Assembly (NCBI GenBank): GCA_905480075.1
Contig: CAJQOX010000074.1
Location: 1 to 64,000 of the forward strand
DNA length: 64,000 nt
Reading direction: 5' to 3'
Origin: an uncultured Aureispira sp.
Lineage (GTDB): Bacteria > Bacteroidota > Bacteroidia > Chitinophagales > Saprospiraceae
Shown here piece by piece: positions 50,456 to 59,735 of the stretch; positions within the stretch are counted from its first letter, which is position 1, and each line of letters starts with the position of its first letter. The notes under the pieces are model-generated. The model did not search any database, was not told where the DNA came from, and saw only the letters and a list, made by a program, of their open reading frames with translations. The translations under genes and the position numbers were made by a program.

Positions 50456-51283
50456 ATGAAATTAGAAGTATATAACATAAACGGTGAAAACCTCGGTAGA
50501 GAGGTGGAACTGCCAGACTCAGTTTTTGGTCTGGAGTTGAACGAGAAACATGATCATGTTGTCTATCTTGCTGTTAAAAAGTACCTTGCCGCTCAACGTC
50601 AGGGAACTCATAAAGCTAAAGGTCGCGCAGAAATTAAAGGTTCAACCAAAAAAATTAAAAAACAAAAAGGTACAGGTACTGCTCGTGCAGGTTCTATCAA
50701 AAATCCTTTGTTCCGTGGTGGTGGTCGTGTTTTTGGTCCTGAACCAAGAGATTACACCATTCAACTGAATAAAAAGGTGAAAAAACTTGCCCGTAGATCT
50801 GCTTTGTCTTCTAAGGCTCAGGAAGGTGCTATTATCGTCGTTGAAGATTTTGTCTTCGATAGCCCTAAAACTAAAACATATCTCAATTTGTTAACTAGCC
50901 TGAAAAATGGTGAAAATGACTTGAGTGATGCTAAAAGTCTTTTGATCCTTGATGCTCCTCAGATTGATAATGCTCCGGTAAAACCTAAGTTGCCTACCAA
51001 GAAAAGAGGCGCTAAGAAAAAAGCGGCTTTTGCTGATGCGATGAAGTCTTACTCCTCTGACTTGAAAGCGTATAAGGAAAATCTTAAAACTTATACAGCT
51101 TCCATGGATGAGCATATGGATAAAGTCGAAAAAGGTTATGACAATATTGTTTTGTCTAGCCGTAATATTAAAAAAGCTGTTGTGGCAGATGCCAAAACAC
51201 TTAATGTTTATCAAATTTTGAATGCTAATTGTTTAGTAGTTTCTGAAAGTGCGGTGAATCGCCTGTCTGAAATGCTTTCATAA
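50456..51283 (+). CDS. rplD: Ribosomal protein uL4, with internal insertion
   Basis: '[46 protein letters not shown]', C-terminal '[37 protein letters not shown]'. Confidence 0.97.
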
Positions 51284-51318: not shown

Positions 51319-51669
51319 ATGAAAAATATTATAATCAGGCCGATTCTTACTGAAAAAACGAATGCCCTGGCTGAAAATCCACTTCTTAACCAATATACTT
51401 TCGAAGTGTTGAAATCAGCTAATAAAATAGAAATTAAAAATGCAGTTGAAGAACAGTTCGGTGTAACTGTAAATTCTGTCAATACTTCTATTCGCCCGGG
51501 TAAAGCTAAATCAAGAGTCGTGAAAGGCCGCCATACTAAAGGTCGTACTTCTTCTATCAAAAAAGCAATCGTTACTATTGCTGAAGGAGAATATATCGAT
51601 GGTTTCTTTGGTGATATGGGTATGGATGAGGTTGAACTCATCGATGATAACGAAGAAGCTAATGCTTAA
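51319..51669 (+). CDS. rplW: Ribosomal protein uL23
   Basis: 'IIIRPILTEKTNALAE', 'FGVTVNSVNTSIRPGKAKSR'. Confidence 0.96.
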   Translation: MKNIIIRPILTEKTNALAENPLLNQYTFEVLKSANKIEIKNAVEEQFGVTVNSVNTSIRPGKAKSRVVKGRHTKGRTSSIKKAIVTIAEGEYIDGFFGDMGMDEVELIDDNEEANA

Positions 51670-52882: not shown

Positions 52883-53302
52883 ATGGAACAAAATCAAGAG
52901 TTTGTAACGGCTGTTGCGAAAATTAAAAACTGCCAGATGTCTGCCCGCAAAATGCGGTTAGTAGCAAATATCATCAGGGGAGTAGAAGTTGAAAAAGCAC
53001 TCGGTATTCTTAAATATACCAAAAAAGAAGCTGCTTTATGGTTGGATAAACTATTAACTTCCGCTATCGCTAACTGGAGTGTTTTGACTGAAGAGGAAGC
53101 TGATGATTATCAGTTGGTAGTCTCTGCAATCTGGGTAGACCAAAGTTCGCAACTCAAACGTTTTCGCCCGGCTCCACATGGCCGCGCTCATCGTATTCGC
53201 AAACACTTCTGCCACGTAACCCTTCAGGTTTCTAATTCAAAAGCATTGGAAATTTATGAAGAAGCAGAGCAGGAAGTTGAAGAATTAGAAGAAACCGAAT
53301 AA
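52883..53302 (+). CDS. rplV: Ribosomal protein uL22
   Basis: 'SARKMRLVANIIRGVEVEKALGIL', 'RFRPAPHGRAHRIRKHFCHVTL'. Confidence 0.97.
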   Translation: MEQNQEFVTAVAKIKNCQMSARKMRLVANIIRGVEVEKALGILKYTKKEAALWLDKLLTSAIANWSVLTEEEADDYQLVVSAIWVDQSSQLKRFRPAPHGRAHRIRKHFCHVTLQVSNSKALEIYEEAEQEVEELEETE

Positions 53303-57874: not shown

Positions 57875-58243
57875 ATGAGTTCTAAGACACTAAATCGTCG
57901 TAAAAAGGTTCATAAAAGAATCAGAAAAACTCTCTCAGGTACGGCTACAAGACCTAGATTGTCAGTATTTAGAAGCAATAAGGGTATTTATGCTCAAGTT
58001 GTTGATGATACTACTGCTACTACGCTTGTTGCAGCTTCATTCAAGGAAATTGAAGCAACTACTAAAATTGAGCAGGCTAAGGCTGTAGGTCAGTTAATTG
58101 CTTCTAAAGCAATAAAAGCTGGTATTACTACAGTGATTTTTGATAGAAGTGGTTACTTATACCATGGCCGGGTTAAGGCTTTGGCTGATGGTGCCCGCGG
58201 TGAACGTAAAGAAGACGGAACCAACGAATTGTTACAATTCTAA
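57875..58243 (+). CDS. rplR: Ribosomal protein uL18
   Basis: '[37 protein letters not shown]', '[23 protein letters not shown]'-like C-terminus. Confidence 0.98.
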
Positions 58244-59048: not shown

Positions 59049-59735
59049 ATGAAACTTAATAATTTAAAACCCGCTAAAGGTTCTGTTAAAAATAGAAAAC
59101 GGATTGCCAGAGGTGTTGGTGCAGGTTCAGGTCGTACGGCTACTCGTGGTCATAAAGGGGCTAAATCTCGTTCAGGTTACTCTAATAAAAGAGAATTTCA
59201 AGGTGGTCAAATGCCTTTGCAGAAACTCTTGCCTAAAAGAGGGTTTAAAAATTCGCACCGTAGATATCAATCGGGAAGACCTGCTGAATATACTGCTATT
59301 AATCTCTCTCAGTTGGAATACTACGCAGGTAAACATAACCTGACTGAAATCACTCCGGCTATCTTTGCTGATTTAAATATCGTTAGCAAATCCAATACCT
59401 TTAAGGTGTTGGCCAAAGGTGATCTAAAACTTGCTCTTGAAGTTACCGCTCCTCGTTTTTCCGCCGCTGCTAAAAAAGCAATTGTGGATGCCGGAGGTAA
59501 AGCTTTTGTCGAGGTTAAGTTGAACTCTTTGCAAGGGATAGCTCATTCTGAAAAAGTTGAAAAAGTTGATTTGGCTCTCATTAAGAAGCACTTTCCCTTT
59601 GTTCAAGATGACGATTGTTTTCATGTTGTAGCAGAAGGTGATATTTCTAATAAGCTAACTATTGAGACTCATAAAATTTCTGAAGAAGCTAAAGCTCAGA
59701 TTGAAGCCCTAGGCGGTTCTGTTGTTTTGGTTTAG
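59049..59735 (+). CDS. rplO: Ribosomal protein uL15 with duplicated C-terminal domain
   Basis: 'MKLNNLKPAKGSVKNRKRIARGVGAGSGRTATRGHKGAKSRSG', 'FQGGQMPLQKLLPKRGF'; 228 aa instead of the usual about 150. Confidence 0.97.
   Translation: MKLNNLKPAKGSVKNRKRIARGVGAGSGRTATRGHKGAKSRSGYSNKREFQGGQMPLQKLLPKRGFKNSHRRYQSGRPAEYTAINLSQLEYYAGKHNLTEITPAIFADLNIVSKSNTFKVLAKGDLKLALEVTAPRFSAAAKKAIVDAGGKAFVEVKLNSLQGIAHSEKVEKVDLALIKKHFPFVQDDDCFHVVAEGDISNKLTIETHKISEEAKAQIEALGGSVVLV

What the first reader, a model, noticed from the sequence alone, without database searches (positions are those of the whole stretch)
59349..59735. Tandem duplication of the C-terminal domain in ribosomal protein uL15
uL15 is 228 aa instead of about 150. 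The extra C-terminus aligns by eye with the preceding domain: 'FKVLAKGDLKLALEVTAPRFSAAAKKAIVDAGGKAFVEV' versus 'FHVVAEGDISNKLTIETHKISEEAKAQIEALGGSVVLV'. This looks like an internal domain duplication in a core ribosomal protein, which would add density on the large subunit surface.
Basis: partly seen in the sequence, partly recalled or inferred. Interest (0 to 1): 0.6.

Follow-up and report, generated by a model that had tools for sequence, protein, structure and literature searches.

The report
Doubled domain in ribosomal protein uL15
In one clade of marine, partly predatory bacteria (Aureispira, Saprospira and two unnamed genera), the core ribosomal protein uL15 carries a second copy of its folded domain, and its neighbour uL4 carries a 60-residue insert in exactly the same genomes, so this clade probably builds an enlarged surface on its large ribosomal subunit.

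Summary
uL15 (window 59049-59735, 228 aa) has the normal bacterial N-terminus and C-terminal domain (residues 80-153), followed by a second copy of that domain (154-228). The second copy alone hits PF00828 at 4e-12. AlphaFold gives it the same strand and helix order, and a model built only from second-copy sequences matches uL15 in the PDB (TM 0.86).

It is not a Bacteroidota norm. It occurs in 16 of 398 Saprospiraceae genomes, in 4 of 112 genera: Aureispira, Saprospira and two unnamed genera. It was not seen elsewhere in order or phylum samples. These genomes form one clade (bootstrap 100). The copies duplicated once, before the clade radiated, and copy 2 is under purifying selection.

The same 16 genomes carry a ~60-aa insert in uL4, a structural neighbour of uL15. 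The clade members checked also have a 7-aa insert in uL15 and an acidic uL23 tail. bL20, bL21 and 23S length are unchanged.

My reading is a coordinated, lineage-specific enlargement of the 50S surface around uL4 and uL15. It resembles the archaeal/eukaryotic pairing of eL18, which has the same fold, with a uL4 extension. The docking itself is inferred, not shown. Novelty: new variant of a known kind.

The parts
59049..59735 (+). rplO, ribosomal protein uL15 with duplicated C-terminal domain (228 aa)
   Evidence: TIGR01071 148.9 bits vs cut-off 77.95
59049..59264 (+). ordinary bacterial uL15 N-terminal extension (residues 1-72)
   Evidence: alignment A4; PDB matches over residues 1-153
59265..59285 (+). 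7-residue insert (about residues 73-79, YQSGRPA; 6 residues in carrier G095) between N-terminal extension and domain 1; in all duplicated proteins aligned, in none of the single-domain relatives shown
59286..59507 (+). domain copy 1 (residues 80-153), equivalent to the ordinary uL15 C-terminal domain
   Evidence: PF00828 residues 84-152; pLDDT about 92
59508..59732 (+). domain copy 2 (residues 154-228), the extra L15/L18e-fold domain, acidic in most members
   Evidence: PF00828 4e-12; pLDDT about 87 and 86 alone; PDB uL15 TM 0.86
50456..51283 (+). rplD, ribosomal protein uL4 (275 aa instead of about 208)
50957..51133 (+). about 60-aa insert of uL4 (residues about 168-226), Pro-rich start then a charged, Tyr-containing segment, in the globular domain after the segment SLLILD
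   Evidence: present in the same 16 genomes as the uL15 duplication
51613..51666 (+). acidic C-terminal tail of uL23 (about 18 residues), in the clade members checked

Best explanation
In the common ancestor of the Aureispira/Saprospira clade, the segment of rplO that encodes the C-terminal L15/L18e-fold domain was duplicated in frame and in tandem. The protein remains the cell's only uL15: the N-terminal extension and copy 1 are the normal rRNA-binding parts. Copy 2 folds the same way, has diverged, turned acidic in most members, and is kept by purifying selection. The most likely working is that copy 2 sits as an extra, mostly protein-facing module on the solvent side of the 50S next to domain 1, and packs against the ~60-residue insert that uL4 gained on the same branch. 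The pair would brace the uL4/uL15 region in assembly or in the mature subunit. Shown: duplication, fold (predicted), single origin, selection, co-occurrence with the uL4 insert. Inferred: location, contact with the uL4 insert, and function.
For: Homology and fold of copy 2. Single origin: copy 2 monophyletic with bootstrap 100, copy 1 with 80; the clade is monophyletic with bootstrap 100 in a 16-protein tree that leaves out uL15 and uL4. Selection: copy 2 is as conserved as copy 1 (56 % and 55 % mean pairwise identity) with dN/dS about 0.08-0.24. Co-occurrence: the 16 family genomes with the duplication are the 16 that match the full-length uL4 with insert. uL15 and uL4 touch in the bacterial 50S (456 square angstroms; PMC4881015). 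The uL15 contacts seen in the passages read from that paper's table use residues 8-63, so domain 1 has no protein partner listed there. Most other S10/spc/alpha proteins, and bL20 and bL21, keep normal lengths.
Against: No structure of such a ribosome was found, and no contact between copy 2 and the uL4 insert was modelled. Both changes map to one long branch, so their joint occurrence is one coincidence, not 16 independent ones. uL23, uL22 and (in part of the clade) uL3 and uL18 also grew, so general growth of r-proteins in this clade could explain the pairing. uL15 reaches uL4 through its N-terminal extension, not its C-terminal domain.
Confidence: 0.6

Rival explanations
1. Neutral growth: the duplication was fixed by drift on a long branch and copy 2 is a tethered, non-essential domain. 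The uL4 insert and uL23 tail are independent growths of r-proteins in the same lineage.
For: Several r-proteins are longer in this clade; the stem branch is long (0.12); Saprospira copies have drifted far (PF00828 0.0047 for S. grandis, below cut-off; G715 not detected).
Against: Copy 2 is kept in all 16 genomes; in close pairs its dN/dS is about 0.08-0.24 and it is as conserved as copy 1. Small and large subunit proteins in the same operons mostly keep standard lengths.
Confidence: 0.22
2. eL18 convergence (a sharper form of the main reading): copy 2 occupies a place like that of archaeal/eukaryotic eL18, which has the same fold, and binds the uL4 insert as eL18 binds the uL4 extension.
For: eL18 and the uL15 domain share fold 3.100.10 (PMC11354259); in yeast the first part of the uL4 extension is accommodated by eL18 (PMC4598080); eL13-eL18 extensions meet on uL15 (PMC7804294); uL4 insert and copy 2 co-occur; the copy-2 profile weakly matches an eL18 chain (E 0.23).
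Against: The yeast uL4 extension is C-terminal, whereas this insert is internal. Copy 2 is acidic, while eL18 also binds rRNA. The eL18 profile match is not significant.
Confidence: 0.2
3. Extra-ribosomal or regulatory use: copy 2 lies on the surface as a binding platform for another factor (assembly GTPase, nascent-chain factor) or for feedback on its own mRNA.
For: Acidic, non-rRNA-like composition (net charge -3 to -6 in all 13 members tested except G095).
Against: No candidate partner was found; the co-occurring change is in a ribosomal neighbour.
Confidence: 0.13
4. Artefact of assembly or gene calling (frameshift fusion of two rplO genes).
For: None found.
Against: One uninterrupted frame in 16 genomes of 4 genera, several with chromosome-sized contigs, with one rplO per genome.
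Confidence: 0.01

Closest known systems
Bacterial uL15 (TIGR01071, PF00828)
   Same: Same gene place in the spc operon, same N-terminal extension, same C-terminal fold; scores above the equivalog cut-off
   Different: Carries a second complete copy of the domain and a 7-residue insert; the bacterial uL15 chains in the PDB listed here are at most about 160 aa with one matched stretch
eL18 (archaea, eukaryotes)
   Same: Same fold as the uL15 domain (PMC11354259); neighbour of uL4 and uL15 in 60S subunits
   Different: A separate protein; copy 2 here is fused to uL15; eL18 model NF003079 scores 37.8 against a cut-off of 85 and its best stretch is in copy 1
Chloroplast and mitochondrial uL15 with long extensions
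   Same: Longer than about 150 aa
   Different: Only one matched L15-type stretch per chain in these searches, so no second L15 domain was seen
Co-evolved extensions of neighbouring r-proteins in eukaryotes (uL4, eL18, eL13, eL15; PMC7804294)
   Same: Neighbouring r-proteins gain matching parts on one branch
   Different: Here in one bacterial clade, by duplicating a whole folded domain of uL15, a protein listed as not developing extensions (PMC11354259)

Membership tests
Bacterial uL15 (TIGR01071) | Score above equivalog cut-off | tested here: met
   148.9 bits vs 77.95
Bacterial uL15 (TIGR01071) | Single copy between rpmD (uL30) and secY | tested here: met
Bacterial uL15 (TIGR01071) | One C-terminal domain, about 150 aa | tested here: not met
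   Two domains, 228 aa; this is typical rather than strictly defining, so it is filed as a variant of uL15
Bacterial uL15 (TIGR01071) | Incorporated in the 50S subunit | not testable with these tools
   Only uL15 gene in the genome, so very likely
Ribosomal L15/L18e domain (PF00828), for copy 2 alone | Score above gathering cut-off | tested here: met
   46.8 bits vs 21.5 for the window protein; G095 32.5 bits met; S. grandis 17.8 just below; G715 not detected
Ribosomal L15/L18e domain (PF00828), for copy 2 alone | L15/L18e fold | tested here: met
   Predicted model matches uL15 9i5t_O, TM 0.86 over the query, rmsd 1.9
eL18 | Score above eL18 model cut-off | tested here: not met
   NF003079 37.8 vs 85; PF17135 15.4 vs 28
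eL18 | Sits on uL4 and uL15 in the large subunit | not testable with these tools
   Needs a structure

The most novel reading that the evidence does not exclude
A bacterial lineage independently re-created an eL18-like module: a second L15/L18e-fold domain, here fused to uL15, docks on a newly gained uL4 segment on the 50S solvent side, as eL18 and the uL4 extension do in eukaryotes.
Probability: 0.2. Interest if true: 0.85.

Novelty: new variant of a known kind. Interest (0 to 1): 0.55.

Why it matters
[quoted passage not shown] A whole-domain duplication in it, in the same clade as an insert in a neighbouring protein, is a natural experiment in how ribosomes grow by coordinated addition of protein parts. 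That process is usually studied in the archaea-to-eukaryote transition. Saprospira grandis and Aureispira sp. CCB-QB1 have been studied as cultured strains, so one cryo-EM structure could settle it. It is also a clear molecular marker for the clade.

Tried and rejected
Assembly or frameshift artefact: rejected. Phylum-wide feature: rejected. Longer open frames in other genomes (G368, G031, G078, G413, G170, G137, G238, G409, G165) were checked and are ordinary 148-158 aa proteins. The Dehalococcoidia hit L037 is an ordinary 160-aa uL15. Clade-specific length change of 23S rRNA: none between long conserved anchors, and only one 3-base insertion shared strictly by the clade, in an alignment of 11 sequences; this is a coarse test. 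Enlargement of bL20 or bL21: none; bL35 64-66 aa in the carriers where found. Viral-contig search gave no relatives. Literature searches found no description of a duplicated uL15 domain or of Aureispira ribosomal proteins, but the library lacks most subscription papers. A motif search for copy 2 in named genomes found only six records labelled Aureispira or Saprospiraceae plus L037; it missed Saprospira, so it is not exhaustive. Phyla other than Bacteroidota were not surveyed systematically.

Full report
What is there. The ORF at 59049-59735 (+) encodes a 228-aa uL15 at the normal place between uL30 and SecY, and it is the only uL15 in its genome. Residues 1-153 align end to end with ordinary bacterial uL15. 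The remaining 75 residues are a second copy of the C-terminal domain. Copy 2 without its first three residues hits PF00828 at 4e-12; copy 1 and copy 2 align over 70 columns at profile probability 96.8 % and E 2.7e-10; and a profile of copy-2 sequences alone finds the C-terminal domain of uL15 chains in the PDB.

Structure. AlphaFold2 on the whole protein (46 sequences, copy 2 supported only by the duplicated proteins) gives confident domains at about pLDDT 92 and 87 with the same order E-H-H-E-E-H-E; the N-terminal extension is low confidence, as expected for a part that folds on rRNA. Copy 2 alone, with only 13 copy-2 sequences, folds at pLDDT 86. Its best PDB matches are uL15 chains (9i5t_O, TM 0.86 over the query, rmsd 1.9).

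Distribution. All nine genomes of the window's genus carry it. The genus is Aureispira: locus L004 (G008:C21) and named contig NZ_JHBV01000021.1 of Aureispira sp. CCB-QB1 have the same length (157,192) and the same uL15. In 398 genomes of the family, 16 genomes in 4 of 112 genera carry it, with a wide score gap to the rest (weakest full-length match 7.6e-90, best single-domain 1.6e-62). One of these genera is Saprospira: G685 contig 1 is 4,250,550 bp, the chromosome length published for S. grandis strain WH-T. Samples of 399 genomes of the order and 396 of the phylum found no others.

History and selection. A tree of 16 other operon proteins (2,689 columns) puts all nine sampled carriers in one clade, bootstrap 100 on the branch separating carriers from all non-carriers, sister to the other sampled Saprospiraceae (the script printed 81 for the re-rooted node, but in the unrooted newick that value belongs to the split inside the clade). 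In a domain tree copy 2 is monophyletic at 100 and copy 1 at 80, so one duplication preceded the radiation. Copy 2 is as conserved as copy 1 (56 % and 55 %) with dN/dS about 0.08-0.24 in close pairs. It is acidic in 12 of 13 members tested (net charge -3 to -6; G095 is 0), while copy 1 is near neutral in most. This fits a surface that does not mainly touch rRNA; that step is inference.

The larger pattern. Comparing lengths across the S10/spc/alpha region, the carriers also have uL4 of 269-275 aa instead of 208-217, by a ~60-aa insert in the globular domain (residues about 168-226; F. johnsoniae uL4 aligns on either side, with the break near its residues 148-160). They also have uL23 of 110-120 instead of 89-99 with an acidic tail, a uL22 N-terminus about 7 residues longer than relatives aligned, and in part of the clade inserts in uL18 and uL3. 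Over 396 family genomes the full-length uL4 match is found in exactly the 16 uL15 carriers; the next genomes match only residues 1 to about 168 with open frames too short for the insert. Genomes below the score limit were not listed individually. uL4 and uL15 are direct neighbours in the bacterial 50S (PMC4881015). bL20 and bL21 keep their lengths, and 23S rRNA shows no clade-specific length change in a coarse test.

How it probably works. The best reading is a coordinated enlargement of the uL4/uL15 part of the 50S solvent side, with copy 2 as a folded add-on packed near domain 1 and likely against the uL4 insert. There is a parallel. In yeast the uL4 extension is first accommodated by eL18 (PMC4598080), and eL18 has the same fold as the uL15 domain (PMC11354259) and lies near uL15 (PMC7804294). 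Whether copy 2 takes an eL18-like place is open; the uL4 insert is internal, not C-terminal, and no superposition was run. Because both changes lie on one branch, their co-occurrence is a single event pair, so I hold the docking claim at moderate confidence.

Comparison with known kinds. By TIGR01071 it is bacterial uL15; by NF003079 and PF17135 it is not eL18. Organelle uL15 proteins are longer but showed only one L15-type stretch. I found no report of this duplication in the open-access library, which is not proof that none exists.

Noticed in passing
50957-51133: uL4 (rplD) carries a ~60-aa insert found in the same 16 family genomes as the uL15 duplication.
   Followed up: yes
51613-51666: uL23 has an ~18-residue acidic C-terminal tail in the carriers checked, absent from other Saprospiraceae and outgroups checked.
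   Followed up: partly
L101, L102, L104, L159 (uL3 gene): uL3 is 229-240 aa in Saprospira and G115, by an insert of about 20 residues or more (alignment shown for G096, G190, G115), but normal in Aureispira.
   Followed up: partly
57875-58243: uL18 ends in [17 protein letters not shown] in Aureispira (GTNEFLQF in G115) and GARGAQKEDGSNELLQF in Saprospira; other relatives, including carrier G095, have a shorter end such as GAREGGLxF.
   Followed up: partly
L118, L119, L124, L125, L131, L132 (bL35): bL35 of the carriers has a HILTK(K/M)SK motif, while other Saprospiraceae checked mostly have SHMMRNKSKKAK; bL35 is a large contact partner of uL15 (PMC4881015).
   Followed up: partly
52883-53302: uL22 has an N-terminus about 7 residues longer in the carriers.
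   Followed up: no
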